Assembly (NCBI GenBank): GCA_021229015.1
Contig: CM037777.1
Location: forward strand, 65,054,219 to 65,118,218
Reading direction: 5' to 3'
From: Solen grandis
Lineage: Eukaryota > Mollusca > Bivalvia > Adapedonta > Solenidae
Length of the DNA stretch: 64,000 nucleotides
Each line of letters opens with the position of its first letter. The stretch's first letter is position 1. The notes beneath the pieces are model-generated. The model was given only the letters and a program-made list of their open reading frames with translations. It ran no database searches and was not told the DNA's origin. This document shows positions 23,153-60,731 of this stretch, in pieces. Position numbers and translations under genes: made by a program.

Positions 23153-23240
23153 GCTACCGGCCGGGTAGCTCAGTCAGTAGAGCATTCGCCCTGTAAGAGA
23201 TAGGTCCCAGGTTCGAGTCCCGGCCAGGCTGCACATTTTT
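23153..23240 (+). mobile_element. tRNA-like SINE head (type D), copy 1
   Basis: GCCGGGTAGCTCAGTCAGTAGAGCATTCGCC and a B-box GGTTCGAGTCCCGG form a tRNA-like head, followed by CACATTTTTCTCACCCTGCGACAT. The same head and tail recur 265 bp downstream, which marks this as a SINE family rather than a tRNA gene. Confidence 0.6.
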
Positions 23241-47107: not shown

Positions 47108-47455
47108 AGGGTGGCACTTTGGTACCCTGATTTTTTAAAAATTATGGTACCGAGTCGAAAATGTATGGTACCGACGGAAATTTATGGTACCTTGAGTATA
47201 TACGAAAAAAGATTTATGGTACCTTATGTTGCATGTAATAAAACATTTCATACCTGGTAGGATGACTTAAGATCTGATAGAGAGAAAGAGTATGAACTTA
47301 CATACCAAACATTCCGATGACGCGATATTGTCATTTTGACGTCATGTATTTCTTTTATTTCTTAGTTAAAGGAGGACCACTTCTTAACGTTTGACAATTG
47401 TAAATGTCCTTTCGAGACATTTGGGTTGACCCTGAAAAGGGCCGTTTTGTTTCTT
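47108..47455. repeat. Polinton left terminal inverted repeat
   Basis: Begins AGGGTGGCACTTTGGTACC and matches the inverse of the right repeat to its end at GGCCGTTTTGTTTCTT, with about 95% identity by eye and a few indels. Its outer part has four ATGGTACC-type words spaced 20-40 bp apart. Its inner end contains a histone-type stem-loop read by the leftward gene at 47,458. Confidence 0.9.
47407..47443 (-). terminator. Histone-like 3' stem-loop plus purine element (left TIR)
   Basis: On the minus strand GGCCCTTTTCAGGGTC (47,428-47,443) folds into a six-pair stem with one G-U pair and a TTTC loop. The 5' flank is ACAAAAC and the 3' flank AACCCA; GAAAGGA follows after a 14-nt spacer. This matches the metazoan histone mRNA stem-loop (6-bp stem, 4-nt UUUC-type loop, ACCA-like tail) with a U7-type downstream element. 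It starts 14 nt after the stop of the leftward gene. The role in 3'-end formation is inference. Confidence 0.7.
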
Positions 47456-47457
47456 GT

Positions 47458-47829
47458 CTAGATTTCGGTGAAATCGTCCTCATCGTCTTTGATTTCTATG
47501 ACATCGTGCTCATCGTCCTTAATTTCGATGACATCTTTTTCATCTTGTAACATCTCCTGTTGTTCTATGAGCATATGGTCTTCATCTTGTTGCTGTTGTC
47601 TCAACATCTCTTGATGTTCCATGAGCATATAGGCATCATGTTCATCTTGTTGCTGTTGTCTCAACATCGCCTGATGTACCATTTGTTCCTATTGCAGTTG
47701 GTATTGTGCAATATGGACTTGCTGTTGTCTCCACTCAATGCGTTGTTGTCCGATCAACCCCATCAATTCATTTCGCGATCTTGATCAAGACGCTGAATAC
47801 ATTCAATCAGATGCTGATATTCTTCCATG
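47458..47829 (-). pseudogene. Gln/Asp/Met-rich small Polinton protein, broken
   Basis: The open part (47,458-47,682) encodes repeated MLRQQQQDEDHM-like and DVIEIKDDE-like units and ends at TAG. Reading upstream, the same Gln-rich character continues to an ATG at 47,829 (starting MEEYQHLIECIQRL), but a frameshift near 47,765 and a TAG at about 47,690 interrupt it. The total would be about 124 codons. I chose the start because a TATA box lies 50 nt upstream. The product is probably a charged, helical protein; function unknown. It is the leftmost gene and reads out into the TIR. Confidence 0.55.
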
Positions 47830-47871
47830 GTTGTGAAGCGAGAAGATGACAGGATGCTTGATGCGGTGCGC

Positions 47872-47940
47872 TTTTATAGCCTTGGGACGGATTGACCTAC
47901 TTTCTATCGAGTGTTAGCGTACACCAATCAGAAACGTTAT
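47872..47940 (-). promoter_or_regulatory. Promoter of the leftmost gene: CCAAT box, GTAGGTCAATCCG motif, TATA box
   Basis: Read on the minus strand: AACGTTTCTGATTGGTGTAC (inverted CCAAT), ACACTCGATA, GTAGGTCAATCCG and CTATAAAAG. The TATA box starts 50 nt before the ATG. The order and most bases recur on the plus strand at 59,936-59,998 before the rightmost gene. Confidence 0.75.
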
Positions 47941-47983
47941 TTTCATTCAATGACAATAACGTGAAGTTTAACCTTGACCTGAG

Positions 47984-48005
47984 GTGGATTGACCTACTTT
48001 GTATT
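47984..48005. promoter_or_regulatory. Extra partial copy of the promoter motif
   Basis: GTGGATTGACCTACTTTGTAT repeats the CGGATTGACCTACTTTCTAT of the promoter about 95 bp away. No TATA box accompanies it, so it looks like a partial duplication of the promoter module. Confidence 0.5.
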
Positions 48006-48132
48006 GACAATCAGAATTGCTGTTAAATTTTGTAAACTTTTGTAAGCTTTTATAAAAACATTGGCTCATATTTTAATGAAAAAATAATTTTGAAGGGAAT
48101 TTAAAAGAAAAGATGTGACAACTGAGGTATAT

Positions 48133-48169
48133 TCTCTTTCGAGACATTTGGGTTGGCCGTTTTTTTTCC
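48133..48169 (-). terminator. Vestigial stem-loop site that has lost its hairpin
   Basis: TCTCTTTCGAGACATTTGGGTTGGCC-GTTTTTTTTCC (given in pieces) aligns with the TIR stem-loop region, but exactly 12 nt (CTGAAAAGGGCC in the intact copy) are missing, which removes the loop and one arm. It lies 13-45 nt downstream of the stop at 48,182. Confidence 0.65.
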
Positions 48170-48181
48170 ACAGAGTAGTGG

Positions 48182-48424
48182 TTACTCATGATTGTCTATG
48201 AGTTTCTTCAGCAGATATTCAACATGTTCTATGGTGATGAAATGTGCTTCAATGATATTTAAGATATCATCGTAGTATAGATCAGTACAGTAACATTCAC
48301 TTAATTTGGCTACGATACTCCTGAGTGTTGTTGATATTTTAAGCGTACGTTGGTATCGGTCCTGTATTTTGTCCATGTCAGATATGCAGTCGTTGTCCCT
48401 GTTAGTTATATGTGACTTATCCAT
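48182..48424 (-). CDS. Small Polinton protein, unknown
   Basis: About 80 residues from the ATG at 48,424 (MDKSHITNRDND...). An in-frame ATG at 48,457 would add 11. I prefer 48,424 because a TATA-like AATAAAAG lies about 52 nt upstream, the spacing seen at other genes here. The protein is polar with a C-terminal helical stretch (IEHVEYLLKKLIDN). No family recognised. An intact histone-like stem-loop lies just upstream (end of the preceding gene) and a vestigial one just downstream. Confidence 0.5.
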   Translation of the reverse strand: MDKSHITNRDNDCISDMDKIQDRYQRTLKISTTLRSIVAKLSECYCTDLYYDDILNIIEAHFITIEHVEYLLKKLIDNHE

Positions 48425-48502
48425 GGCACAGCCTGAAAACGAATGGCATGAATTCATTTCGTTTGATACTTTTATTACTTGGTTTGACAATTGTAAAACA
48501 TG

Positions 48503-48539
48503 TCCTTTTGAGACATCTGGGTTGGCCCTGAAAAGGGCC
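48503..48539 (-). terminator. Histone-like 3' stem-loop, perfect copy (internal)
   Basis: The minus strand has GGCCCTTTTCAGGGCC (48,524-48,539), a perfect six-pair stem with TTTC loop that equals the metazoan histone stem-loop consensus. It is preceded by AACAAC and followed by AACCCA, then CAAAAGGA after about 13 nt. It starts about 25 nt after the stop of the gene at 48,565. Confidence 0.75.
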
Positions 48540-48564
48540 GTTGTTTTTGTTTTTTCTCTACTTC

Positions 48565-48738
48565 TTACTCTTTTTGCCTTTTTTGTTTGTCTTTACAATG
48601 GGCTCCAAGTCTATTCTTAGAATGCGATCCACCATCAAGCGGACATTTGTTGGATGATTCCGCTTTTTCTGGAATGAAAGTGATAGGCACCAGCAGCTTG
48701 TCTGTTTTCAATTTGATACGGCATTCCACTTCTTCCAT
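48565..48738 (-). CDS. Small coiled-coil Polinton protein, unknown
   Basis: The frame is open from 48,810, but the first in-frame ATG is at 48,738 (MEEVECRIKLKTDK...), giving 57 residues. The codons before it also look coding (LKEVINNLIKLQQR, a heptad-like stretch), so the natural start may have been lost or the frame may once have joined the gene at 48,803, which it overlaps by a few bases. The C-terminus is Lys-rich (CKDKQKRQKE). No family recognised. Confidence 0.4.
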   Translation of the reverse strand: MEEVECRIKLKTDKLLVPITFIPEKAESSNKCPLDGGSHSKNRLGAHCKDKQKRQKE

Positions 48739-48802
48739 TCTCTGTTGCAATTTGATGAGGTTGTTGATCACTTCTTTGAGTTCCCTCCCTGGTCCATGTT
48801 GT

Positions 48803-49165
48803 TCAATCAAAAATATCTAACGGTCGTGATGAGATTTTTCTTTTTTTGATGTGTCTCCTTGACGTGCTGGAAGCAGAATGATGTCGACGTTTGAATGCTC
48901 GAGGCTTTATACTTCTCAGAGTTTTCCGACCCACATCTTTCAACAATGCTTTACCCCGTTTCTTGATCACTGTCTTTACATTTTGGCCAGACAGAATATC
49001 TTTTACGGCTCCTATACCTTGTTTAAAGCCCTCTTTTTTCAGAGTCTGTAGTCCTGAGTTTACGATTGGTTTCACCATGGGTAAGATGTTGCTGGCCATT
49101 TTCTTGAACATGGAGCCCAAACCATATCCGACTTGTCGAGGTTGACCACGGTAAACTGGAACCAT
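48803..49165 (-). CDS. pX/pVI-like amphipathic minor virion protein
   Basis: 120 residues, intact. A Gly/Tyr-rich N-terminus with GYGLGSMF leads into amphipathic helices (ASNILPMVKPIVNSGLQTLK) and a helix with KDILSGQNVKTVIKKRGKAL. The C-terminus is strongly basic (KPRAFKRRHH, RRHIKKRK). The layout resembles the Polinton and adintovirus proteins compared with adenovirus pVI/pX, which interact with membranes or condense DNA inside the capsid. It lies directly after the penton-like gene, its usual neighbour, overlapping it by 94 bp in another frame. The family call rests on pattern and position. Confidence 0.7.
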   Translation of the reverse strand: MVPVYRGQPRQVGYGLGSMFKKMASNILPMVKPIVNSGLQTLKKEGFKQGIGAVKDILSGQNVKTVIKKRGKALLKDVGRKTLRSIKPRAFKRRHHSASSTSRRHIKKRKISSRPLDIFD

Positions 49166-49999
49166 CGTGTCTTTCTTTTAAAATGAAGCTTCACCATCGA
49201 CTTCGCGTGAGTGAAATGAACTGTATCCCCTGTGTCGCCGGTTATATTGATACTGATCTCGTTGAAATATGATCTGCTGACAGGTATGTAGTGTAGACTT
49301 AGAAATTCAAAGTGCATGTGTGGATTAGCCCCTGCTTTTGTTTTTGCGTCAAATGGCACAATGCGTAAAAATGGGTGCTTCGACATCCCCTATCAAAATG
49401 TGTTCTGCCAGATCGGTATATACAAACAGATGGTTCATCTTCGTGATGAGGTCCACACCGTACTTGAATCTGTTGTTGTCTTTGTTCGGAAAAACCACAG
49501 TACTTCCCTCTCCTCCAAGTTTCGTAAGGAGGTTTGGATGAAGTTCCAAGCCGATCATTGATCCACTATTTCCGGTAAACTTGACACGTTTTGACAAGCC
49601 GGAAAAATCAAGTCCAAATGTGAGGTTTCTTTGAGTAAAAATTGTTTTAGTGGCTTGTTTAATAGCCTTGTCTATTTCGTCAGTGAGATGTTGTGGTGAC
49701 GCATAGATGCCTGCAGGAATGCAAAGGCGTATTGCCCATTTTTTGTCTTCTAATTCACACCCGTTTGTCACTTGTGAAAAAGCTGCAGCCAGTTCTGGAT
49801 CTTTAGTCACGACTTAGAATTTTCCTTCATCCTCTTCGATGTTTCTGACTTGTGTGGGAACTATCATTTCCACGAGAGCCACTTCCCAATGTTTGTCGAC
49901 ATCAATGGTTTTTGCCAGCTTGGTTCTAAAACAACATTGTATGTTGTTTGGGTACAATGTCATCGAACTATCACTGATGAGAGTGATGTAGAAAGAGTT
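49072..49999 (-). pseudogene. Penton-like minor capsid protein (single jelly-roll), broken
   Basis: Three consecutive pieces on the minus strand. The N-terminal piece (49,999-49,817) has SFYITLISDSS and HWEVALVEMIVP and ends at an in-frame TAA (49,814-49,816). The middle piece (49,813-49,349) includes HLFVYTDLAEHILIGD. The C-terminal piece (from about 49,386) has FLRIVPFDAK, LHYIPVSRSYF and MVKLHFKRK. This motif order is that of the Polinton protein assigned as penton. There is one nonsense change, one frameshift near 49,350-49,385, and a Lys codon where a start is expected just before NSFYIT. The normal stop also seems lost, so the frame runs on into the pX-like gene. Confidence 0.75.
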
Positions 50000-50009
50000 C
50001 TTTTTTTTT

Positions 50010-50230
50010 TTAAATTTTAAACTTGGGCTTTGGAAGAATGTATTCGATAGAAGTACTCATCAGCAGCAACCAAAGTTCACGATCTGGACTAATGACACGA
50101 TTACGGTGATAAAGATGATCACAATCTGTGTCAAGAAAGTGATTTTGTTGTGAGGAACCTCACTTTTTCCTGTCTGTATACTGTTGTCTACCTGAACACT
50201 GCTGGTATCGGACTGAGACATGCTGTTCAT
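50010..50230 (-). pseudogene. Small Polinton membrane protein with one frameshift
   Basis: ATG at 50,230 opens a 57-codon frame: a polar N-terminus, then a hydrophobic segment (ITFLTQIVIIFITVIVSLVQ). In that frame it ends soon after the segment. An overlapping frame continues with DRELWLLL and IEYILPKPKFK to a TAA at 50,010. Small proteins with this hydrophobic segment and a Pro/Lys-ending tail commonly sit just upstream of the penton-like gene in Polintons, so I infer one gene with a 1-nt frameshift near 50,095. The paired GTATAAA words just upstream (50,235-50,248) are too near the ATG for the usual TATA spacing. Function unknown. Confidence 0.5.
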
Positions 50231-50314
50231 GACGTTTATACTTTATACTAAATGCGATTTTGGAATCCAGCTGTTAAACTTTTTAGGATATCCAAGTCAC
50301 TTCACTTTCACTTC

Positions 50315-51325
50315 TTAAAAAGATTTACCGCCTACACGCCTTGTACGCCGATCAAGAACTGATTCCACTTCGTATAGCTCATCATCTTTTATATGTTGAA
50401 TTTCATCCCTGTAGAAGGATCCGGCGATAGATTCTCCAGCCAAGTCTTCAAGTTTTACGGCCAATGGATGTGTTCTGTTGATGCGAACCACTTTGAACAA
50501 TTCCACTGTCCAGTTGGTAGATAGCCTTTGCCAAATGTTTGCTTGGTTTTATTGATGCGCACTATATCACCCACTTTCAAATCAGTTGATTTCTTATTTT
50601 CTTTTGATGGTTGCCATACAATGTCTTTGTGACTTCATGCTCATTTTCTCTAGACACAGATGCAGGGGTACGCCCGATGCTTCGATGAAAACGATGATTG
50701 TAGCCATGTACCAGTAGTTGCAGTACATCCACATAGTGACGGGTCTTGTGATGAGTAAAATATTTCCACATTCTTGAATTTAGCGTACGTTAAAAACGTT
50801 CAACAATACTCGCTTTAGTTTCTGGGTTTTCAGACGTGAAGAAATGAATGTCATGCTTGTCTAGAAACTTCTGAAATTCCTTGTTCAAAAATTCTCGGCC
50901 TTTGTCTGTTTGCAAAGAGAGTGGTTTTCGGCCTTCTTTTAGAATAGACTGAAAGGCTTGGATGATTGGATGATCCAGTTTTGATTTGTATTACCCAAGC
51001 ATAATTTGAAAACACATCAATGACACATAGTAAGTAGCGATATGGTGAATTCTCTTTGTACATACGTTGCATATCTGCGAGATCAGCTTGCCACTGATGA
51101 TCGATACCTCCTACCACAGTCTGTCGACGTCGAAATTTTCGTCGTATTGTTTTATGCAACGTGTAGGTTCTTTGACTTCTCAACCAGTCCCGTACATCCT
51201 CTAAAGAGATAGATCTGTTCTTTCGCTGCCTTGTAGAGTCCATGAATTCCTCCAAAACTCGTAGGATTATCAGTATCATAGTACAGGTGACGAAGCAACG
51301 TGTCCTTCTTTAGTAGGCGTCCCAT
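50315..51325 (-). pseudogene. DDE integrase (retroviral-like, Polinton type), broken
   Basis: Integrase joins the element ends to target DNA. The start ATG at 51,325 overlaps the end of the preceding gene by 16 bp. Parts in order: the N-terminal region with LLRHLYYDTDNPTSFGG; LEDVRDWLRSQ; the catalytic core with WQADLAD (first Asp), YLLCVIDVFSNYAWV, LQTDKGREF (second Asp) and ASIVERFN (Glu); YNHRFHRSIGRTP; then the C-terminal SH3-like part KVGDIVRI and DELYEVESVL. All three catalytic residues are present but in different frames. At least five frameshifts lie near 51,265, 50,975, 50,790, 50,580 and 50,520. The chromodomain-like end seen in longer relatives is missing after RRTRRVGG. Confidence 0.85.
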
Positions 51326-52034
51326 GACGAATGGGCTAATATCTCCTGGGGTTCTTCCTTTTTAATAGGTCTTTGTTTCTTTGATGTAGATGCGTAGGCA
51401 AAACTTTCATGAAATTCATCCTCCTCCTCCTCTTCTTCTTCATCATCATCTGGTTTTTGTATGAAATTCCATCGACGTTTATTGCCCACGACTTCTTGTG
51501 GGATGTTGACCTCTCTCAGTCCTCTAGAAAATTGCTCCCATCCTCGTGGATTTGACCCTTTCCGCTGTCGAAGTACATCATTGACCAGATCAATAATATC
51601 TGAACCTTCAACGGGTTTTCCATCATATTCTAACAGGTCATGTTCATCCCAACTTAAGTGAGGATGGTCTTTCAGCATGTTTAACAAAAGAGTAGCCTTT
51701 CGCCCCATGGTCGTGGGAACACTGTCTAGAATTTGATCATCGGTTTTTCCTCTTTCTTTACAGTCACTGTACTCGTTGTTTTTTCAGCCATGTGTGGTCT
51801 GGAGGGTTTGAGTGCTTTTTTGTGTGACACTTGAAAGCGATGTAATGCTTCTCCAAATTGTTGTGCTTTTTCTGACTCAGACAATTGATTGTCGTCAAGA
51901 ACTTGATTCATTTCTTTCTGTAATGATGAAGTCTGACTCACTTGAGGGGATGGGGGTAACCGAGGTCGTTGTTCCTTCTTCCATCGATTCATCTCTTCCA
52001 GCAATCGAACCGGAACATAGGCCATCTTCTTCAT
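51310..52034 (-). pseudogene. Conserved Polinton protein of unknown function, one frameshift
   Basis: The N-terminal part (52,034-51,726) starts MKKMAYVPVRLLEEM and contains LDDNQLSESEKAQQFGEALH. The C-terminal part (to 51,310) contains ATLLLNMLKDHPHLSW, SDIIDLVNDVLRQRK and GWEQFSRGLREVNIP and ends after a Glu/Asp run. In known Polintons these two regions belong to one protein, with a short Val-Pro linker that is open here in the second frame across the TAG at 51,726. I therefore infer one gene of about 240 codons with a frameshift near 51,735. Its ATG overlaps the stop of the upstream gene (ATGA). It is probably structural or packaging-related, by position only. Confidence 0.65.
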
Positions 52035-52721
52035 ATTATCCGAATGATTTCACCAGCAAGAGGTATAATTGTTTTGGCTAAGAGTGGTGCAAGTGCCAAC
52101 TGGGGTAGAAAACCATCTTTCTGATTGAGAATGATTTTTTCGAAGTGATACTTTCTTGGTGGCTAACTGTCGGAGCTGATGTCTCTTAGAATGCAATCGA
52201 CGCTTCTGAGCCTCTGACAGTGGTACATTGCCTTTTAAAATGTTGTGACAACATTCAGCAATACAATCTACCAATTCTTTTGGTGCTTCTTGAATAATCT
52301 TCTTTCGAAATTTGGGCGAGGCTTCTGTCAAAGCAAGCAACATTTTGCCATGTTTGCGAACGAGTGGTTGTTTGCGCTTCATGATGACAAATGGTGATGA
52401 AAAGTTTGGTCTCTTTAATTTATACCACTGTTGAAGGGCTTGTAAAGCGATATTGCCAGCACTACTCAGTGGTCCTGAATTTCTCATCGCAGTAACGGCA
52501 GTAGGTAAAGGGGAATGGAGACTTGGGATTGGTGAAAATCTTGATGATGATGATGATGATGATGAACGCCCACTTGAAGAATTGGAAAGGTCAAACAATT
52601 GCCGTCGAACTGTAGGGTTTGGAGAAACCTTCATTGATCCTTGTATTGTAGCCAATCCAGACCTCATCGAACTTCTATTAGAACGGGGAGTAGATGAGGT
52701 CAGTGGAGAGAATTGGGCCAC
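52031..52721 (-). pseudogene. Conserved basic Polinton protein, frameshifted near the C-terminus
   Basis: The open frame (52,721-52,050) has a Ser-rich, probably disordered first half with an S-run, then MKRKQPLVRKHGKML, EASPKFRKKIIQEAPKEL, NILKGNVPLSEAQKRRL and LRQLATKKVSLRK. The second half is a conserved small basic Polinton protein. Near 52,120 the reading frame shifts: the alternative frame gives GFLPQLALAPLL and ends at TGA 52,031-52,033, overlapping the next ATG as ATGA, which supports it as the natural end. No ATG opens the long frame; in-frame ATGs exist at codons 19, 30 and 113. Probably nucleic acid-binding; function unknown. Confidence 0.6.
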
Positions 52722-52739
52722 AGGTGATCTTTGATGTTG

Positions 52740-53231
52740 TCATGGGTAACATCATGTCGAATATATGGGACACTGTTGGTGGTCAGGGTTTCTTACTTCA
52801 GTGACAAATCGGGTCATGAGCTGCATTCTTGTTTGTTTCCTACTGGTGACTTGCGTGTGGTTGGCTTTGCCGTGGTTGTTGTCGTGACGTTTCCTGGCAT
52901 GATACATTCGTTTGGTGTTGTTTTCTTCTTGAACCAAATTTCACAGCTTTGTCTCCATTAAGAGGTACGCATATGGTGCCCAAGACCTCCGCAGTTTTAA
53001 GATAAGTTTCGTTTGTGGTAAATCACAGTTGATCAGCTGTCTTTACATGTCTTTGTTGCTTTCATAAAATCCATCGCATGTTGCACGGTTACTTTTTTCT
53101 CTAATACGCAGCTAAGGTGAAACCTTTCAACCATCTGTCAAACTGATTACCAGCTCTTGTCGTTTCGTTGGGTTCTTTTCCCGTCTCAACGATTCTAGAG
53201 CTTTGATCACTGTATGTGGTGTGTATTCCAT
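52740..53231 (-). pseudogene. Decayed Polinton gene of unknown function
   Basis: ATG at 53,231 (MEYTPHTVIKALESLRREKN) stands 51 nt after a TATA box (53,276-53,282). After 34 codons the frame stops, and plausible coding continues in another frame (VERFHLSCVLEKK, VQHAMDFMKATK) and then a third (YLKTAEVLGTICVPLNGDKA). A His/Arg/Gln-rich end follows (HARKRHDNNHGK, in yet another frame). At least three frameshifts and one stop. No family recognised. Confidence 0.45.
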
Positions 53232-53275
53232 GGTAGCTGTATCCTTAATGATGATCGGATGTCATGTTCCAGTCA

Positions 53276-53282
53276 TTTTATA
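53276..53282 (-). promoter_or_regulatory. TATA box
   Basis: TATAAAA on the minus strand within CAGTATAAAATGAC, 51 nt upstream of the ATG at 53,231. The spacing matches other genes of the element. Confidence 0.6.
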
Positions 53283-53311
53283 CTGTAGTGTAGACGATCG
53301 GTCCTCGATCT

Positions 53312-53923
53312 TCACCTGTTACCCACCGATGGAACACATCTTAAACGATTCAGGTCGGGTGTTCTTGGATGAAAGTCAATGATAAGATATCCATGAGGTG
53401 TAGAGGTTGCATCTTAATACGCCATCACTAAATGGGGTAGTTGTATTTGGTTCGCAAGTGTTTTGATCTGACCTTTATCTCTTGTGTTTTGAAATAATAC
53501 CATGTAGTGTGCATTCAAGCTGATGGTACGACTAGCCTTGGATTGTTGGAACATGTTTTGTGTGATGTAAATGACAGTGGCATTTCTATGGTGTCCCTTT
53601 CGTGTGAACCATAATTTAATTTTCTCCTCATCTTTTTCTTCTAACATATCATCAAATATGACGAGGTGTGGTAAGGTTGTATCGTCTACTATCTCTTCAT
53701 CATCCTCAGGGATACCCTGATTGAATTTGATAGCTTCACGTGCTTGTAACTGTGCGTAGGCACTTTGCCATTCTTTGTAACACCAGACGATGTGTTGTGG
53801 TACCACATGAAATAAATATGTTTTGTACTCAATACGTTTTTTTACAAATTGAGTTTTTCCTAAACCACTTGGCCCTGAGATGAAAATATTACTAGGATGT
53901 TGAAAAAGTAAACTACTTTCCAT
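53312..53923 (-). pseudogene. FtsK/HerA-type genome-packaging ATPase (A32-like), premature stop
   Basis: Pumps the element's DNA into capsids in the family model. The ATG at 53,923 starts MESSLLFQHPSNIFISGPSG. The Walker A motif is GPSGLGKTQF (residues 17-26), Walker B is LVIFDDML, then VIYITQNMF with the sensor Gln and LNAHYMVLF with Arg/Asp further on. An in-frame TAA (53,414-53,416) ends the main frame at residue 169, but the same frame continues with family-like DATSTPHGYLIIDF to a TGA at 53,312. So this is one nonsense change that removes about 33 residues. A TATA box lies 51 nt upstream. Confidence 0.9.
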
Positions 53924-53967
53924 GATGGTCTAAGAAATAATAACAGCATTGACATGACAACATTTTA

Positions 53968-53974
53968 TTTTATA
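53968..53974 (-). promoter_or_regulatory. TATA box of the ATPase gene
   Basis: TATAAAA on the minus strand, 51 nt from the ATG at 53,923. The adjoining AATAAA (minus strand, 53,964-53,969) could also serve as polyadenylation signal for the gene ending at 54,008. Confidence 0.6.
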
Positions 53975-54007
53975 CATCATAGCAAATAAACACTTGAACA
54001 ACATCAG

Positions 54008-54250
54008 TCAAAAATGTAAACTATGACACACATCATGAATCAGTCTTTCTTTATACATCATCCATTTCGGGAATATCATGGTATATCCCATAGCATTTAA
54101 AGCCATGCGCACTTCGTCAAACAGTTCCTCGGATTGTCTTAACGCCTGTTCTGATTGAATTCCAAGTACACGTACAGCCAACAGCACAGCTCTACGCCAT
54201 GGATTCCGAATTGGAGTTATGTTTTTTTCCTGTAGTGAAGTATTTTCCAT
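54008..54250 (-). CDS. Small Polinton protein, unknown
   Basis: 80 residues from an ATG at 54,250, intact. Contains NPWRRAVLLAVRVLG, QSEELFDEVRMALNAMGYTM and IFPKW. No family recognised. It is mixed-charge and helical in character, without a membrane segment. It lies 13 bp after the stop of the F-box-like gene and 84 bp before the ATPase gene. Confidence 0.6.
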   Translation of the reverse strand: MENTSLQEKNITPIRNPWRRAVLLAVRVLGIQSEQALRQSEELFDEVRMALNAMGYTMIFPKWMMYKERLIHDVCHSLHF

Positions 54251-54263
54251 TTTTTTTGGCTTC

Positions 54264-54883
54264 TCATTCGTCTTGCAAGTACTCTGCGTAGTATCTTATT
54301 TTGTAGGTGTCCCAGAGGGATTTGTCTCCCAACTCAAACCTTTCTAAGTTGACGAAATCGGGATCTTGAAAGAACTGTTCACTAGGATTTGGCCTCTTTT
54401 GTTTGAATATTGCGGCGCACTGTTTACCAAAAGTGTTAAACACTTGTGCACAAGTGATAGGTTGTGGAGTTAGTAAAATGGCACGTTTATCCTCTGGTGT
54501 GTCGTTCCGGTAGTTAATCGCAAATCTGAGATACATACGCTCATCAAAACGGATCAGTTTCTCCACTGTGTCAATGTTTATGGTGTCAATGTATATGTAC
54601 CACACGTCAGAGATCAGGTTGCATAGCAGCTTTAAATGACGAAAATCCGTTGAATGACCAAACTTTTATAGCTGCTTGGAAGATCACGCTCTCGAACATC
54701 ATTAAAGATATCTTGAACTTGGTTTAAACAGCAGGGATCCTCCATCGTCTGGTGAAATATTCTGTTTCCAATGCGCTGTGCCCAGGTAAAAAAAATCTCG
54801 TTGCAAAATGCAGCAGGTTTCTTATTAGCTTCAACTAGATGTCTGCAGATCATCTGTTGCATTTCTACTGGTAGAGTGTTCAT
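54264..54883 (-). pseudogene. F-box-like protein, one frameshift
   Basis: ATG at 54,883 starts MNTLPVEMQQMICRHLV, which resembles the N-terminal half of an F-box (Leu-Pro, then hydrophobic positions). RIGNRIFHQ, VQDIFNDVRERDLPSSY follow. The frame ends at 54,632. From about 54,660 a second open frame, which has no ATG of its own, carries WYIYIDTINIDTVEKLI, MYLRFAINYRNDTP and WDTYKIRYYAEYLQ to 54,264. I infer one gene of about 205 codons with a frameshift near 54,645. F-box proteins recruit substrates to SCF ubiquitin ligases, so a host-interaction role is possible. The F-box call is weak: the Trp usually found late in the motif is not placed with confidence. Confidence 0.4.
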
Positions 54884-54944
54884 TGTGAATCTCCGTATGT
54901 TTCCACCACCGTTCAGGCTATGCACACGATCACAAGCCAACTGG

Positions 54945-57900
54945 TTATGAAGGTTGGTAACCGTACGGCACTGTCTTATATTTGTCCACGACCACGCGTT
55001 TTGTATACACCGAGCGGAACGTCTTAGTCTGTGTCTCACTGGTCACTTTGCGATTTCTATGTCTCTTGATTCGGGATTCATATTGGATGACTGTTTTGTA
55101 ATGTTCGCGATCTTGTACACAGTCGACCATAGTCTTAAAATTGACTTTCTGACTAGCATTGAAATCCAAAGTGATGCCTTTTACTTTGCATTTCTGATGT
55201 CGATTTCCTTTTTCATCGATGTATTCATACCCATAGTTTTTTGGCCCTAATGCCACGAATTTGACAATGCGTCCATGTGGTACTTCATCTGTCCACTTTC
55301 CCAAATGACTATCTTCAATTGGAATGTTGTACTTGTCAGGGTCATAGATGTAAATGCAACTGTCTGTGTCAAAATACAGTACCCGATCTCCAAGTTTTTC
55401 CAACTCGGTGTAAAGTTCAAGTCGAGCATAGGACGTAACGAAGGCAGCTACCACTGGATTTGAAGATGAATGGGGCTGTGTTGCGTCTGTTTCATCCGAG
55501 TAATCCACCAGCATAAAGTTGTCATGATCGAAAATCTCGGCAAACTGCACAGTGACATGACGGTCGGAGAGTAGGTCATACAACCGGTTTACCTTAGACA
55601 CATACTCGGTCTTGGTTTGAACATTGTTTTGTGCATTCTTACCCCACAAGCAGTTCAACATGGTTTTGGCAAACGCTCTTTTTCTTTTTTTCTTTTTCAC
55701 GTTGTCGAGCCAGATACCAACTATCTGAAAATAATTCTGTTTAAAGCGGGCTTCATCATGTTCTGTTTTTACCCAATTAGGGTAACCAATTGCTTCTTGT
55801 TACAATTTCAAGTATTTGTCAATATACTGTTTATACACATCTTTACTCCATGTGTCCCAGTGCTAGATGTGGAAGACGTCTACCAATTGGTATCCTACCT
55901 CAAGAGCTTTGGCTATTTCCACATGGGTCCAGGTACCTGTCAACATGCGTTTGTACAGAGTGTGATTGCATTTTTCACACTCTTCCTCAGCACAGTGTAA
56001 AGATCATTTTCTTGTTACAGTGAATAGGTAGGACGGGTAGCCACAGATCTTGTGGTAGCAATACACGACATTTGATGAATCCCTTGTACTTTCCAATGTT
56101 CTTTGTATCAATCATCTCTTGACTTAAGATGTTGGGATGTCCCACGGGGTATGCTTTGTACTTGTTCACGAATGGATACAGAGAGCAAATGACAGCATAC
56201 TTGATTTCTTCCTTGGTGGTTGTATCCACTTCACGGTAAAATTGAACGGCATTGGTTCGTCCACCAAGCAAAGCATCCCGAGGTATAATAGGTTCTTGGA
56301 AGGGAAAGAAACTCTGTATCTCTGTATTCTGGTTCAATCTTACATTTCTGATCAAAGTCACATTCCCACATTACAACTGTGTTGTAACCTTGTTGTGCCA
56401 AGTCTATCAACCGAAAGGTTGTGGCATTGTATAACTGCTCCATAGTTTGAAGTGTGTAACCGTTCACAGTGTCTCTCCTTGGGTAACATATTGGACATCC
56501 GTGTGTCCAGCACCCCATGAATTCGTATACGGTGTTCGTCTCTTTGTGGAACCCGTCAACGTAATAGGGTCCAATTTGTACTTCACCTCCATTTAATGCA
56601 TGGCGAATGTGCTTATTCTCAATGGAAGCAGTTGTTTCTATCTAGCGAATCCCTTTGATTGAGTATCGAGTTTTGTTTGGATACCCGTCATCAGAGATTA
56701 CAGTCAAGGTCTTTGGAGGCATTGAATTTTTACGCCAAGTTTTGTTGCACACTTTAGCTAGAGTGGTCGCTTCCAGGAACGGATCAATCTGGTCACTGGC
56801 CAACAGTTCTTCCTAAACTCTCCACAACCTCGTCTCAAGATGTCCACATCTGATTTGCAGTACTTTTGCATTTCTAACTGAAAGTGAAACACAGCCTTTT
56901 GTGCCACTTTTGCATTGTACCATTTCAGAAACGCTTCTCTCTTGTCAGGTTTCATGCTGTTGGGTCTGTAAAAATGTACGGGGAGATAGTATCCAATGTA
57001 GTCTTGGTATTCATCCGTGTTGGCATAAAATGGAAACCATCCTTTTGCCATCTCAGTCAATCCAAACGTGTCGGGGAAATCGGACAAAGGCATGTTGAGA
57101 AAACTCAGTGAGTCGATGAATCTCATTAGATTTTTGCTTCCATTCATGATCAATTCTGGTTTGACTGTATCATGTGTCAGTAAGTGCCTCAAAATAAACT
57201 GTGCATCGTATCCTTGTGAGTTGTGAGCAATCACTGTGGTACCTCTGTGACTGGGTTGAAACAGCCATGCACAAAATTCTGACAAGGTGTTGTTACCACG
57301 AAATATTTTTTCTCTTGGCTCATCAACAGCGTCGCATTTCTGACACGGGCTTTCTATGGATTGACGCATACAGTCTCCACAAGCACGCTGAGCAACACAA
57401 AAGTTTGGTATATGTTCACCCAAATCAAATCGGCACTCAAAGTCAAAGAAGATGAAAGGTACAGTCGGTGACTTCATGTTCTCTGGTTCTTTGTACGTGG
57501 GGATATAACACTGATGTTCTGCATCCACAACTTTCTTGCAATATCTGCATTTCTTAGTGCCGGGACATAGATGGTTCTTCTTTGTGCCCACAACCATTTG
57601 ACCACAGGTCTTGCAATTCCATACACTTTCACAGATGCTTTTTTGTAGATTTTCCTGGTTTCGCTATGTGCTGATCAAAACATTTCTGACTATGAAATGT
57701 TCTACCACAGTGACCACATGGAAAGAATCCTTCTTTTGGACATAGTGTTGAGGGATAACACAGACAAATGTTCTTGCAAAAGTGAGCTTCTCTGTTGTTA
57801 TAACCGTAGTTACAGTGTTCACAGAAGTAGCTGCATCCCAGGAAACCAGTGATCGATGTAATGCAATCATAATGTTTACCATGATGATAAATGTGAATCA

Positions 57901-58731
57901 CTTTGCTTTTGTCTATCAGAGGTAGGTGATTGAACAACACGTCCATTTTCTCAAATTGGGGCCACACTTTGATCACATAGTCTGGATAAAGGTGAGCTTG
58001 AATCTTCTTGTATTCTTCTATACCACAAGGTTGATTTGGACTAATGCCCACAATGTCTAACAATGTCTTGGCTTCTTGGCTTTGAAGTAATTTTGCAGAT
58101 TGTCTCATCAAATTCCATCGCTTCTTCCAGGCTGCAGCGTTCGTTTTATTGAGTTTACATATCCCTACCACAATTGATCGTGCCAAGCACATACTGTCGT
58201 GAGCATTGTCTATCTTCAACATACTTCGTTTGACTTTGGTCATGTTCTCAATGCTTAATTGCGATCCAAACGTTCTTTTTGATCTTCCACCACCCTCAGG
58301 CATAATGACATGTGTCATTTCTAACTGGAGATGCCCGTCATGAATCTCAAACTTGTGGTTGCTCTGTGATACTTTCTCTATTTCGTTCAACAGCGTATAT
58401 CCTGAAATGTGTGTTGCATTCCCGAACGGAATGTGGATACCAAACGCTAGGTCAGGATGATTCATAGAGATACGAATTTGATCGTTGTCATTGACCCGTG
58501 CTTCTCTGTATAACTGTTTGACCATGTCATTGAAAAGTTGATGTGTAAATTCAAACGGTTTCTTATATCTTTCAAATGTAACATCGTACACGTGGCCATT
58601 CGTTTTAAATTTTTTTGAAGTTCTCTGTGACCGTGGCTGTATGGAATAATATTCCGTATATCACTCTTGGTCTTTTTTGCAAGTGGCTCGTCATCGCTGC
58701 TTTCTTCACTACTCGACATCGTTGTGATCAT
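54945..58731 (-). pseudogene. Protein-primed family B DNA polymerase (Polinton PolB), multiply broken
   Basis: Replicates the element, primed by a terminal protein in the family model. ATG at 58,731 (or 58,719). Order: acidic/basic leader; N-terminal domain with DSMCLARSIVV and a Cys/His-rich zinc region (FCEHCNYGY, CGHCGRTFHSQKC); exonuclease motifs FIFFDFECRFD, HNSQGYDAQFIL and YCKSDVDIL; polymerase motif A (ICSLYPFVNKY), motif B region (AKTMLNCLWGK), motif C LYFDTDSCIY; GPKNYGY and a C-terminus ending VPYGYQPS. The motif A Asp is Val (GTC at 56,191-56,193). Frameshifts lie near 58,605, 57,640, 56,790, 56,300 and 55,990. In-frame stops are at 56,642, 55,863 and 55,800. Several frameshifts sit in A runs. 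Full length would be about 1,250 codons, normal for the family. Confidence 0.92.
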
Positions 58732-58750
58732 AAGTAAGCGAGCAAAGCTT

Positions 58751-58757
58751 TTTTATA
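58751..58757 (-). promoter_or_regulatory. TATA box of the polymerase gene
   Basis: TATAAAA on the minus strand in TGTATAAAAAAG. It is 26 nt before the first ATG (58,731) and 38 nt before the second (58,719), so the second may be the start used. A GGGCGG GC box lies between it and the divergent plus-strand promoter. Confidence 0.55.
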
Positions 58758-58788
58758 CATCTAAGCTCCGCCCACCTGATCTCAGGCC

Positions 58789-58795
58789 TATAAAG
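58789..58795 (+). promoter_or_regulatory. TATA box of the zinc-knuckle gene
   Basis: TATAAAG on the plus strand, 65 nt before the ATG at 58,854 and about 30 bp from the divergent polymerase TATA box, forming a compact bidirectional promoter. Confidence 0.55.
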
Positions 58796-58853
58796 TGCGG
58801 TTTGACCCGTCCACTTCATCACTCTCAAACCTGATTCAGACTGCTCTCTTCAG

Positions 58854-59377
58854 AATGACCTGCAACGCATTTGAGTTCTGGATGAAAGGACAACTACAAG
58901 CTGATCAGACTAGAAACAGAAAGACAAGTGACATGCTACCGCTGTCAGGAAAGTGGGCATTATGCATCGGCATGTACGAAGAAAGCTTCAACACCTCAAA
59001 CAGCACGGGTGTGTTACCGTTGTCATGAACCGGGACATTTTGTTTCTAATTGCCCAAAGCCTGCAGTGTGCTACAGCTGTCATGAACAAGGCCACTTTGC
59101 ATCCGCTTGTCCTAAGAAAGGGGTGAATAGTACTGTACCTACAGTAAACGCACAGGCGGACAGTGAAATGCAGAAAATGGACGTAGTTGAGACAGTGACA
59201 CAGACGGACAGTGATGTTGAGTTGGTAGAGGCTGTCTCTGAGTTGGAGAAACCTACCGTAAATCCCAAGAAACGCAAGAGAAGCGTCAACACATGCATCG
59301 TGTGTCCTGAGGCTCACCCATCAACAAGCAGTACAGAGTGTAACCGACCAGCTAAGAAACGAAAAAGTAAAATGTGA
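58854..59377 (+). pseudogene. Triple CCHC zinc-knuckle protein (CNBP/Gag-like), frameshift near the start
   Basis: Three C-x2-C-x4-H-x4-C knuckles in a row (CYRCQESGHYASAC, CYRCHEPGHFVSNC, CYSCHEQGHFASAC). They are followed by an acidic Thr/Val-rich stretch and two basic clusters (KKRKRS, KKRKSK) that look like nuclear localisation signals. A binder of single-stranded nucleic acid is likely. The knuckle frame (open from 58,928, about 150 codons) has no ATG before the first knuckle. A start at 58,854 (MTCNAFEFWMK), placed well after a TATA box, reads in another frame, so a 1-nt shift near 58,890 is inferred. It differs from most genes here in its rightward orientation and in ending with a normal AATAAA (59,485-59,490) and no stem-loop. 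It may be captured cargo. Confidence 0.7.
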
Positions 59378-59484
59378 CATTTGAACACTAGACTCGAAAA
59401 CAAAGTTGTGTTATGTTCATTATTTGCTGTATGACCCATGTTTAATTCATTGTTGTTGTATGACACATGTTTGTTGTTAAACAC

Positions 59485-59490
59485 AATAAA
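59485..59490 (+). terminator. Polyadenylation signal of the zinc-knuckle gene
   Basis: AATAAA about 110 nt after the stop at 59,377, the only plainly placed poly(A) signal of this kind on the plus strand of the element. Confidence 0.6.
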
Positions 59491-59515
59491 AATCATATGA
59501 CAATTGTAATAGTTA

Positions 59516-59551
59516 TCCTTTCTACATCATTGTAGTGGTCGTGAAAATGAC
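59516..59551 (-). terminator. Diverged histone-like stem-loop plus purine element
   Basis: On the minus strand GTCATTTTCACGAC (59,538-59,551) has a TTTC loop and a five-position stem with one A-C mismatch. GAAAGGA follows after 15 nt, the same spacing as in the TIRs. It lies about 45 nt after the stop of the leftward frame at 59,597. Weak alone; supported by the loop and downstream element. Confidence 0.4.
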
Positions 59552-59596
59552 GTTTTTTTTGTTGGTTTTTTTTTGTTGTTGTTTTTTGAGAAGTGT

Positions 59597-59845
59597 CTAG
59601 CACTCACTCAAATACAAATACCGCCAGTAATGCCTGCTGGCTTCTGGATATGCCAGGTAAAACCCTGATAAATCCGGGTACAATGGCAAAGGGGGTAAAC
59701 TCGGGTACAAGTTGACACCCTCTTCCTTAATACCCTCTCCCTTGACTTCTACTTTCTTCTTCTTCTCCTTTCGTAACACCTTCCTTATACGTCGAAATAT
59801 CTTACGCAGGAACGTCATGGTGAAGAATGAATACATACACAGCAT
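59597..59845 (-). CDS. Small membrane-anchored basic protein, unknown
   Basis: The frame is open from 59,962 but without an ATG until 59,845 (MLCMYSFFTMTFLRKIFRRI), which gives 82 residues. A short hydrophobic N-terminus is followed by a Lys/Arg-rich helix (RKVLRKEKKKKVEVKG) and a Pro/Tyr-rich end (LYPSLPPLPLYPDLSG). The codons upstream of the ATG are also hydrophobic (IELLTYFFLTIN), so the natural N-terminus may be lost; that part overlaps the promoter of the next gene. No family recognised. Confidence 0.4.
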   Translation of the reverse strand: MLCMYSFFTMTFLRKIFRRIRKVLRKEKKKKVEVKGEGIKEEGVNLYPSLPPLPLYPDLSGFYLAYPEASRHYWRYLYLSEC

Positions 59846-59935
59846 TACACAATTTATAGTCAAGAAAAAGTAGGTTAGTAGTTCAATCCACTTCAGGTCA
59901 AGGCCGAACACATCATTTTTTATTGGATGAAAAAT

Positions 59936-59998
59936 AACGTTCTCCGATTGGTACACCAACACTCGATAAATAAGTAGGTCAATCCGGAACTATAAAAC
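59936..59998 (+). promoter_or_regulatory. Promoter of the rightmost gene: CCAAT box, GTAGGTCAATCCG motif, TATA box
   Basis: AACGTTCTCCGATTGGTACAC (inverted CCAAT at 59,947-59,951), ACACTCGATA, GTAGGTCAATCCG (59,974-59,986), TATAAAA (59,991-59,997). The TATA box starts 47 nt before the ATG at 60,038. Near-identical in order and sequence to the module driving the leftmost gene. Confidence 0.75.
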
Positions 59999-60037
59999 AG
60001 TGCACATACTCTATACATTATTATTCATAAGTGAAAC

Positions 60038-60376
60038 ATGACACCGTACACACGTATGTCCACCCCAGACTTGCTAAAATTGTTCCTCGACAATCCCAGA
60101 TTTGGGGAACAAGAGAGCGACCCAGACAGCTATCACGACCGAGTTGAGGTGTATGATCAATACCTAACTCTTAGAGAAATGGGAGATCTCCCTAATTACC
60201 TGTCAGTTACCTTTGAAGATGTACCATCTACCCTACTACAACAGGGATGGGGACACAGCGTAAACTTCATAGGTGACAAGGATCTAACCCGTTGTCATTT
60301 GCATCTCTTTGCAAGATGGATGAAGAGATATGTGATGGGATGGGACTGTACAACGTGTGGTATGGACCACAATTAA
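60038..60376 (+). CDS. Rightmost Polinton gene, unknown 112-residue protein
   Basis: ATG at 60,038 (MTPYTRMSTPDLLKLFLDNP), intact to a TAA (60,374-60,376). The protein is acidic and mixed, with VEVYDQYLTLREMG, YLSVTFEDVPSTLLQQGW and a Cys pair near the end (WDCTTCGMDHN). No family recognised. It has its own CCAAT/TATA promoter, and a histone-type stem-loop begins 13 nt after the stop, inside the right TIR. It shares this cassette layout with the leftmost gene, though the proteins do not look alike. Confidence 0.65.
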   Translation: MTPYTRMSTPDLLKLFLDNPRFGEQESDPDSYHDRVEVYDQYLTLREMGDLPNYLSVTFEDVPSTLLQQGWGHSVNFIGDKDLTRCHLHLFARWMKRYVMGWDCTTCGMDHN

Positions 60377-60377
60377 T

Positions 60378-60731
60378 AAGAAACAAAACGGCCCTTTTCG
60401 GGGTCAACCCAAATGTCTCGAAAGGACATTTACAATTGTCAATCCCCCTTTAACTTACATAACGTTAAGAAGTGGTCCACCTTTAACTAAGAAATAAAAT
60501 ATGACGTCAAAATGACAATATCGCGTCATTGGAATGTTTGGTATGCAAGTTCATACTCTTTCTCTCTATCAGATCTTAAGTCATCCTAGTTAAATCTACC
60601 AGGTATGAAATGTTTTATTTCATGCAACATAAGGTACCATAAATTTCCGTCGGTACCATACATTTTCGACTCGGTACCATAATTTTTTAATTTTTTTTTT
60701 GAAAAAAATCAGGGTACCAAAGTGCTACCCT
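60378..60731. repeat. Polinton right terminal inverted repeat
   Basis: The inverse of the left repeat, from AAGAAACAAAACGGCC to GTGCTACCCT, with a few indels (an extra ~20 bp near 60,435-60,455 and ~12 bp near 60,590). It carries the same GGTACCAT words near the outer end. Confidence 0.9.
60390..60426 (+). terminator. Histone-like 3' stem-loop plus purine element (right TIR)
   Basis: GGCCCTTTTCGGGGTC (60,390-60,405) pairs over six positions with two G-U wobbles and a TTTC loop. It is preceded by ACAAAAC, followed by AACCCA, with GAAAGGA after 14 nt. It is read by the rightward gene ending at 60,376. Confidence 0.7.

What the first reader, a model, noticed from the sequence alone, without database searches (positions are those of the whole stretch)
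47407..60426. Histone-type 3' stem-loops at the gene ends of a Polinton
Sequence: at 47,428-47,443 (minus), 48,524-48,539 (minus) and 60,390-60,405 (plus) a 16-nt hairpin GGCCCTTTTC(A/G)GGG(C/T)C sits 13-25 nt after a stop codon. It has AAC-type 5' flanks and an AACCCA 3' flank, and a GAAAGGA or AAAAGGA element follows 13-14 nt on. A weaker copy is at 59,538-59,551 with the same loop and a 15-nt spacer to GAAAGGA. Established: metazoan replication-dependent histone mRNAs end in a 6-bp, 4-nt-loop stem-loop with an ACCA-like tail and a purine-rich U7 target downstream, bound by SLBP. Inference: this virus-like element may form non-polyadenylated, S-phase-linked mRNA ends. Two copies lie in the TIRs, so both outermost genes end inside the element's termini. 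I do not know of a prior description of this in Polintons.
Basis: partly seen in the sequence, partly recalled or inferred. Interest (0 to 1): 0.9.

Follow-up and report, generated by a model that had tools for sequence, protein, structure and literature searches.

The report
Virus-like element wearing histone-gene controls
A virus-like mobile element present in well over a hundred copies in this animal's genome carries, at most of its outer genes, a promoter box and a three-part 3' hairpin signal that the host's own histone genes also have, and is therefore likely to make those mRNAs the way histone mRNAs are made, without poly(A) tails and when the cell copies its DNA.

Summary
The window holds a decayed copy of a multi-copy Polinton. 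The five host histone types carry the same parts (H2A with AAATTGTC). Genome-wide the three-part pattern occurs 1248 times, reversed control 0. Pair 3 of the stem changes on both sides in gene E and host H1. Beyond the finding: genes A, C, D, E and F also carry a promoter box found in host H2A and H2B (its 10-nt core in H4), with CCAAT and TATA in the same order. So these genes resemble histone genes at both ends; the core region read does not. SLBP/U7 processing and S-phase timing are inferred: host SLBP exists, U7 was not found, there are no RNA data, and AATAAA lies downstream of three hairpins. The divergent Polinton stretches tested lack the signals. No prior description was found in the searches named.

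The parts
47108..47455 (.). left terminal inverted repeat (matched piecewise to 60378-60731)
   Evidence: inverted arms 89-98% complementary
60378..60731 (.). right terminal inverted repeat
47428..47443 (-). stem-loop, end of gene A (left TIR gene)
   Evidence: Histone3 22.8 bits
47407..47413 (-). purine element GAAAGGA of gene A end
47393..47400 (-). CAATTGTC of gene A end
48141..48159 (-). gene B end: hairpin collapsed to GGCC-AACCC; intact GGCCCTTATCAGGGCC in sister copies
48182..48457 (-). ORF of gene B (91 aa)
48524..48539 (-). stem-loop, end of gene C
   Evidence: Histone3 32.8 bits, E 2.9e-6
48503..48509 (-). purine element AAAAGGA of gene C end
48486..48493 (-). CAATTGTC of gene C end
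59538..59551 (-). decayed stem-loop, end of gene E (perfect GGTCCTTTTCAGGACC in sister copies)
59516..59522 (-). purine element GAAAGGA of gene E end
59499..59506 (-). CAATTGTC of gene E end
59597..59845 (-). ORF of gene E (82 aa, basic, proline-rich)
60038..60376 (+). ORF of gene F (112 aa, right TIR gene)
60390..60405 (+). stem-loop, end of gene F
   Evidence: Histone3 20.0 bits
60420..60426 (+). purine element GAAAGGA of gene F end
60433..60440 (+). CAATTGTC of gene F end
47889..47900 (+). histone-type promoter box GGATTGACCTAC, upstream of gene A
47986..47997 (+). second box GGATTGACCTAC upstream of gene A
59974..59985 (-). box GGATTGACCTAC in the E/F divergent promoter
59877..59889 (-). 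box variant GGATTGAACTACT in the E/F promoter
56758..57597 (-). piece of DNA polymerase B (core gene)
   Evidence: Pfam DNA_pol_B_2, E 8.6e-9
53414..53923 (-). packaging ATPase (core gene)
   Evidence: Pfam Pox_A32, E 1.2e-6
50851..51279 (-). integrase piece (core gene)
   Evidence: Pfam rve, E 0.012, below cut-off; sister copy rve (below cut-off) and chromo

Best explanation
Six small outer genes of this Polinton family carry the host's replication-dependent histone 3'-end signals, and five of them also carry a promoter box found in host histone genes, so they are likely transcribed and 3'-processed as if they were histone genes, which would give S-phase-linked mRNAs ending in a stem-loop instead of poly(A). 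Shown: the shared sequence parts, their order and spacing, their recurrence, and their absence from the core region read. Inferred: host SLBP binds the stem-loop, U7 snRNP pairs with the purine element, CPSF73 cuts a few bases after the stem, the promoter box recruits the host's histone transcription factors, and the mRNAs rise and fall with DNA replication. The core genes would use ordinary polyadenylation: one (protease-like) has AATAAA after its stop codon, tail to tail with the hairpin of gene D. The element would thus have two classes of mRNA, one tied to S phase.
For: 1) Host histone genes (two loci, C3:50.91-50.96 Mb and C1:50.506-50.517 Mb) end in GGCCCTTTTTAGGGCC (H1: GGTCCTTTTCAGGACC) followed by GAAAG/GAAGGG-type and CARTTGTY-like elements; Polinton ends line up part for part. 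2) Three-part pattern: 581+667 matches in 1.32 Gb, reversed control 0+0; exact hairpin 632+647 against 1+0. 3) Ends of genes D and E differ from A/C/F in their spacers but keep hairpin, a purine element and CAATTGT. 4) Over 21 hairpins that I chose (12 Polinton, 4 other repeats, 5 host) 99.2% of 126 stem cells pair; pair 3 changes on both sides (C-G to U-A) in 3 of 21; 1 of 500 shuffles reached the covariation score. 5) GGATTGACCTACT: 1013+993 against 2+8; 92 of the 100 listed chromosome-1 boxes lie within 1.2 kb of a listed hairpin, 3 of 1000 random positions do. In host H2B and H2A the box sits at -83 and -90; H4 has its core ATTGACCTAC at -80 to -91. A 15-mer AAGTAGGTCAATCCG is shared with H2B and a 14-mer GTTAGTAGGTCAAT with H4 (0 of 200 shuffles each). 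6) Order CCAAT - box - TATA - ATG agrees with host H2A/H2B. 7) Of 13 chromosome-1 copies of the polymerase gene, 12 lie in the range of the hairpin listings and all 12 have a hairpin within 3.7 kb. 8) An SLBP RNA-binding domain is encoded in the genome.
Against: No RNA evidence. U7 snRNA was not found (Rfam search silent in all controls; patterns below control; candidates without a stable 3' hairpin). NPAT_C gave no match, but its controls were silent too. AATAAA lies downstream of the hairpins of genes A, C and F in the window (47359-, 48476-, 60493+), so polyadenylation past the hairpin is possible. H3 lacks the box and its shared words are no longer than in shuffles (200 of 200); gene B lacks box and TATA. 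For H2A and for H2B of the C1 locus the shared word alone is weaker (5 and 15 of 200 shuffles). Only one stem pair covaries; the number of such pairs and of pair types did not exceed shuffles (225 and 500 of 500). Window hairpins score below Rfam's cut-off. Family copies are about 91-97% alike, so copy number is not independent evidence. The divergent Polinton stretches tested lack the feature.
Confidence: 0.8

Rival explanations
1. The outer genes descend from a captured host histone gene pair: promoter and 3' end came together and the coding part was replaced or diverged. Function as above, but the origin is one capture, not piecewise mimicry.
For: Both ends match host histone genes, and gene E shares the GGTCC..GGACC stem with host H1. 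Divergent promoters as in E/F and C/D resemble H2A/H2B pairs of other animals (recalled).
Against: No product looked histone-like by eye, and of those scanned (B, C, D, E, F; not A) none hit a histone family. Long stretches beyond the motifs are not shared (longest common word 15 nt).
Confidence: 0.3
2. The hairpin is a DNA-level or packaging/recombination signal of the termini, and its likeness to histone ends is fortuitous.
For: Two copies lie in the TIRs; the stem is a near-palindrome.
Against: Four of six gene ends (B, C, D, E) lie outside the TIRs, on the sense strand after stop codons; purine and CARTTGTY elements and promoter box also match host histone genes.
Confidence: 0.04
3. The hairpins end or stabilise poly(A) mRNAs, as hairpins do in mimivirus (recalled), with AATAAA downstream doing the real work.
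For: AATAAA lies downstream of the A, C and F hairpins. Misprocessed histone pre-mRNAs use such downstream signals in flies and humans (PMC6303110, passages seen).
Against: Histone-type stem and loop, purine element at histone spacing, and shared third element.
Confidence: 0.1
4. The signals are relics of an old association and no longer work in this host.
For: The window copy is decayed: hairpin of B collapsed, E mutated, genes broken.
Against: Many sister copies keep perfect hairpins and long open polymerase frames.
Confidence: 0.06

Closest known systems
Metazoan replication-dependent histone genes (stem-loop, histone downstream element, SLBP/U7 processing; Rfam RF00032)
   Same: Stem-loop sequence, 5' AAC-type and 3' A-rich/ACC-type flanks, purine element at 12-14 nt, CARTTGTY-like element, promoter box with CCAAT and TATA, single open frame, short distance from stop to stem
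   Different: Products are not histones; genes sit in a mobile element; loop mostly TTTC as in host H1, where host core histones have TTTT; processing untested
Polintons/Mavericks and adintoviruses
   Same: TIRs, polymerase B, packaging ATPase, integrase with chromodomain, double-jelly-roll capsid
   Different: Outer genes carry histone-gene controls; not seen in the flanks of two divergent copies here or in a contig of a Bathymodiolus symbiont MAG
Bracovirus histone H4 (passage in PMC12819152)
   Same: A virus meddling with host histone gene regulation
   Different: There a viral histone protein acts; here non-histone genes borrow the control signals
Mimivirus 3' hairpin rule (recalled, not looked up)
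   Same: Hairpins at the ends of viral genes
   Different: Those mRNAs are polyadenylated and the hairpins are not of histone type

Membership tests
Replication-dependent histone 3' end (RF00032) | 6-bp stem, 4-nt loop, GG..CC histone sequence | tested here: met
   perfect stems in sister copies
Replication-dependent histone 3' end (RF00032) | reaches Rfam gathering score (34 bits) | tested here: inconclusive
   not met by the window copies (32.8/22.8/20.0); met by sister-copy hairpins (L010, L011, L013, L022, L024, L025: 37-39 bits)
Replication-dependent histone 3' end (RF00032) | compensatory change in the stem | tested here: met
   pair 3 C-G in 18 and U-A in 3 of 21; only one pair, few independent events
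Replication-dependent histone 3' end (RF00032) | purine-rich downstream element at histone spacing, as in host histones | tested here: met
   12-14 nt after the stem
Replication-dependent histone 3' end (RF00032) | pairs with host U7 snRNA | tested here: inconclusive
   U7 not located
Replication-dependent histone 3' end (RF00032) | non-polyadenylated mRNA ending just after the stem; SLBP bound | not testable with these tools
   no RNA data; SLBP domain present in the genome
Host histone promoter class | GTAGGTCAAT box at -80 to -91 with TATA and CCAAT (H2A, H2B) | tested here: met
   genes A, C, F reversed box at -64 to -72, TATA -43 to -50, CCAAT; D, E forward box; B not met; host H3 itself lacks the box
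Polinton/Maverick | terminal inverted repeats | tested here: met
Polinton/Maverick | type B DNA polymerase | tested here: met
   DNA_pol_B_2 E 8.6e-9
Polinton/Maverick | retroviral-type integrase, often with chromodomain | tested here: met
   Chromo 1.2e-9 above cut-off, rve 3.3e-5 below cut-off, in sister copy L076
Polinton/Maverick | double-jelly-roll major capsid protein | tested here: met
   L076 433 aa, model pLDDT 83.5, best PDB match Sputnik virophage structure E 3.7e-15; not in the window copy, whose layout leaves no room for it
Polinton/Maverick | FtsK/A32-type packaging ATPase | tested here: met
   Pox_A32 above cut-off
Polinton/Maverick | adenovirus-type protease | tested here: inconclusive
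   145-aa ORF in L002 looks adenain-like by eye; no Pfam support

The most novel reading that the evidence does not exclude
A DNA virus lineage disguises its outer genes as host histone genes at both ends: a histone promoter box at the start and a stem-loop/U7-type 3' end at the finish. It thereby runs a private S-phase gene class, non-polyadenylated and possibly made in the histone locus body, beside poly(A) core genes. This would be the first natural non-histone animal-cell mRNAs with histone 3' ends and the first viral use of that pathway.
Probability: 0.7. Interest if true: 0.93.

Novelty: new variant of a known kind. Interest (0 to 1): 0.88.

Why it matters
Two papers state that replication-dependent histone mRNAs are the only known animal protein-coding mRNAs without poly(A) (PMC6303110, abstract and passages seen; PMC12819152, passages seen). 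A virus-like element that borrows both the promoter box and the 3' end would break that rule. It would show how an integrating DNA virus could time expression to host DNA synthesis, and would give natural variants of a histone promoter and 3' end of this host lineage. It also points to a concrete unknown: what binds GTAGGTCAAT and CARTTGTY in the host's histone genes.

Tried and rejected
Viral contigs (IMG/VR): hairpin plus purine patterns gave 2 and 2 stretches; the three whose frames I printed (L071-L073) looked like phage or bacterial DNA by eye, the fourth (L074) was not looked at. Polymerase and capsid searches found no relatives there; a promoter pattern gave 0. Bacterial/archaeal genome collection: three-part pattern 0; capsid alignment 1 locus, on a contig filed under a Bathymodiolus symbiont MAG, without Histone3 hit at E up to 10, near-match hairpin, CAATTGTC or TTGACCYAC.

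U7 search: Rfam U7 silent even in controls; TTTC-Sm pattern 97+97 against control 161+129 (30 of 194 loci were folded, one gave a hairpin under -8 kcal/mol and was not pursued); CTTTCG-Sm pattern 3 against control 8, the 3 candidates lack a stable 3' hairpin. Not accepted as U7.

Divergent polymerases: of 7 divergent loci listed on chromosome 1 5 lie in the range covered by the listed patterns; none has the three-part pattern within 40 kb (lists compared by eye). Direct reading of one 5' flank each for two divergent copies (6.5 and 6.0 kb): no Histone3 hit, no box. Their other flanks were not read, so absence is not proven.

Promoter statistics: longest shared word is a crude test; H3 showed nothing (200 of 200 shuffles equal or better), H2A 5 of 200, second H2B 15 of 200. 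The H1 promoter was outside the loci held.

Literature: searches (listings seen, mostly the best 20; passages of PMC6210712, PMC6303110, PMC11071296, PMC8905726, PMC12819152). None seen describes histone-type ends or promoters in Polintons or viruses. The library holds open-licence papers only.


Full report
What is there. The window lies at C1:65054219-65118218 of an unnamed 1.32-Gb animal genome. The element at about 47.1-60.7 kb has TIRs of about 350 bp and core genes of a Polinton: DNA_pol_B_2, Pox_A32-type ATPase, integrase piece. A sister copy adds integrase plus chromodomain and a 433-aa protein whose predicted fold matches double-jelly-roll capsid proteins, a Sputnik virophage structure first. 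Members of that capsid family are named F54H12.2-like in Mercenaria, Crassostrea, Saccostrea and Ostrea, so a bivalve host is likely; I did not identify the species. The window copy is decayed: between the ORF ending at 48803 and the hairpin at 48539 there is no room for the capsid, protease-like and RING-like genes that sister copies have there (layout), and a search of the gene-D region against the element found only promoter and hairpin pieces.

The 3' ends. The three hairpins are as described and are the best structured-RNA hits in the element. 300 shuffles gave none. Each is followed by a GAAAGGA-type element and then CAATTGTC. In sister copies six genes end this way: A (left TIR gene), B (97 aa), C (161 aa, PQ-rich), D (87 aa, RING-like at E 1.9e-4 but below the curated cut-offs), E (78-82 aa), F (112 aa). 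Stop-to-stem distances in copies with a readable frame: A 87 nt (one copy), B 27-32, C 12-16 (71 from one early stop), D 34, E 18-19, F 49 (13 in the window).

Host histone genes. The Rfam family search scored 75 of 260318 candidates and listed 52, 47 over the cut-off, so its counts are lower bounds. Of the 30 loci fetched, 18 are histone loci (L014-L021, L029-L038), 6 belong to this Polinton family (L010, L011, L013, L022, L024, L025), 4 to a GDSL/SGNH-like repeat (L023, L026-L028) and 2 to a Cys-rich ORF repeat (L009, L012). H3, H4, H2A and H2B end in GGCCCTTTTTAGGGCC; the H1-type gene (Lys/Pro/Ala-rich tail) in GGTCCTTTTCAGGACC. All five have a GAAAG-, GAAAAG- or GAAGGG-type element 12-13 nt after the stem and then CARTTGTY (AAATTGTC in H2A). 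Between Polinton genes A/C/F, D and E the spacers differ while the three parts stay.

Numbers. Exact hairpin: 1279 in the genome, reversed control 1. Three-part pattern: 1248, control 0; five of the listed chromosome-1 places are histone genes, one is L075, and the rest read like Polinton ends by their printed spacers. Stem pairing over 21 hairpins that I chose (12 Polinton, 4 other repeats, 5 host): 99.2% of 126 cells; one pair with changes on both sides, in 3 sequences; one unpaired cell; covariation score reached by 1 of 500 shuffles, but the number of pairs with two-sided changes by 225 and of pair types by 500. Covariation alone is therefore modest. 139 polymerase copies were scored out of 1441 candidates, mostly 93-97% identical to the window piece. 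On chromosome 1, 13 of these are listed; 12 lie in the range covered by the hairpin listings and all 12 have a hairpin within 3.7 kb; the 13th (105.7 Mb) could not be judged.

The promoters. GGATTGACCTAC turned up in the Polinton intergenic regions and, without having been sought there, in the histone loci. In host H2B and H2A it lies reversed at -83 and -90 from ATG; H4 has the core GTAGGTCAAT at -80 to -91; H3 lacks it within 400 nt; H2B of the C1 locus has one mismatch. H4 also shares GTCAAGGTCGAA, adjacent to its box, with the promoter of gene C. Polinton A, C and F: reversed box -64 to -72, TATA -43 to -50, CCAAT upstream; D and E: forward box at -70 and -42/-43 (D in L008 and E in the window have only the distal box by exact match); B has neither box nor TATA. 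Host H2A/H2B: TATA -50 to -69, CCAAT -115 to -170. Genome count of GGATTGACCTACT: 2006 against 10; 92 of the 100 listed lie within 1.2 kb of a listed hairpin, and 56 of 61 (one search list) and 56 of 58 (one search list) hairpins in the same range have a box within 1.5 kb. The 4.5 kb of core read (L076) has no box, no CAATTGTC (one CAGTTGTT within coding sequence) and no Histone3 hit at E up to 10; the window core has no box. CAATTGTC/T words do occur in the window core inside ORFs without a hairpin (51887-, 52601-).

Two mRNA classes. The protease-like core gene in L002 has AATAAA about 110 nt after its stop, tail to tail with gene D's hairpin; another AATAAA follows the ORF ending at 54008 in the window. 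This suggests poly(A) ends for core genes and histone ends for outer genes. Against a clean split, AATAAA also lies downstream of the A, C and F hairpins; the one after C may instead serve gene B as a TATA-like element (guess). Ends of the other core genes were not surveyed.

How it likely works (inferred). Outer genes switch on with histone genes at S-phase entry, their transcripts are bound by SLBP (domain present), cut by the U7/CPSF73 machinery near the AACCCA flank (major mammalian cut 5 nt after the stem, ACCCA; PMC6303110 passage), and are lost when replication stops. The RING-like protein may act on the host, but this is a guess.

Scope. The divergent Polinton stretches tested lack the signals (contig in a mussel-symbiont MAG). 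An SGNH-like repeat, one copy of a Cys-rich ORF repeat, and one ORF end that looks like a pogo/Tigger transposase by eye (L075, no Pfam support) also carry the three-part end. So histone-type ends may have been picked up by several mobile elements in this genome.

Novelty. Searches showed no paper on histone-type ends or promoters in Polintons or viruses. The parts are known kinds; their combination is not described in what I could search.

Noticed in passing
L023, L026-L028, L085, L086 (C16:5.0M, C19:21.47M, C1:45.17M and 45.18M, C1:90.99M): A repeat encoding a GDSL/SGNH-like protein (below the Pfam cut-off) ends in the same three-part histone-type end; perhaps a DIRS/Ngaro-type retroelement (recalled).
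   Followed up: partly
L009:1048-1565 and L012:1045-1561: A 114-aa Cys-rich ORF in a dispersed repeat ends in GGCCCTTTTAAGGGCC plus CGAAAGGAAT; L009 also has CAATTGTC, L012 does not.
   Followed up: partly
L075 (C1:97467000-97468200): An ORF that looks like a pogo/Tigger transposase C-terminus by eye (no Pfam support) lies before a three-part histone-type end.
   Followed up: partly
host histone loci L014, L030, L037: CARTTGTY after the purine element and GTAGGTCAAT at -80 to -91 look like histone control elements of this host lineage; one text search for the box word gave nothing on topic among the 20 listed of 165 papers.
   Followed up: partly
L082 (C6:37358600-37359600): A three-part histone-type end (GGCCCTTTTTAGGGCC) with no recognisable ORF just before it.
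   Followed up: no
L089 (JACCHT010000004.1): A bacterial symbiont MAG contig holds a Polinton-type capsid gene (38% identical), so it is probably misbinned mussel DNA.
   Followed up: partly
window 23159-23231: A tRNA-like match (43 bits) outside the element.
   Followed up: no
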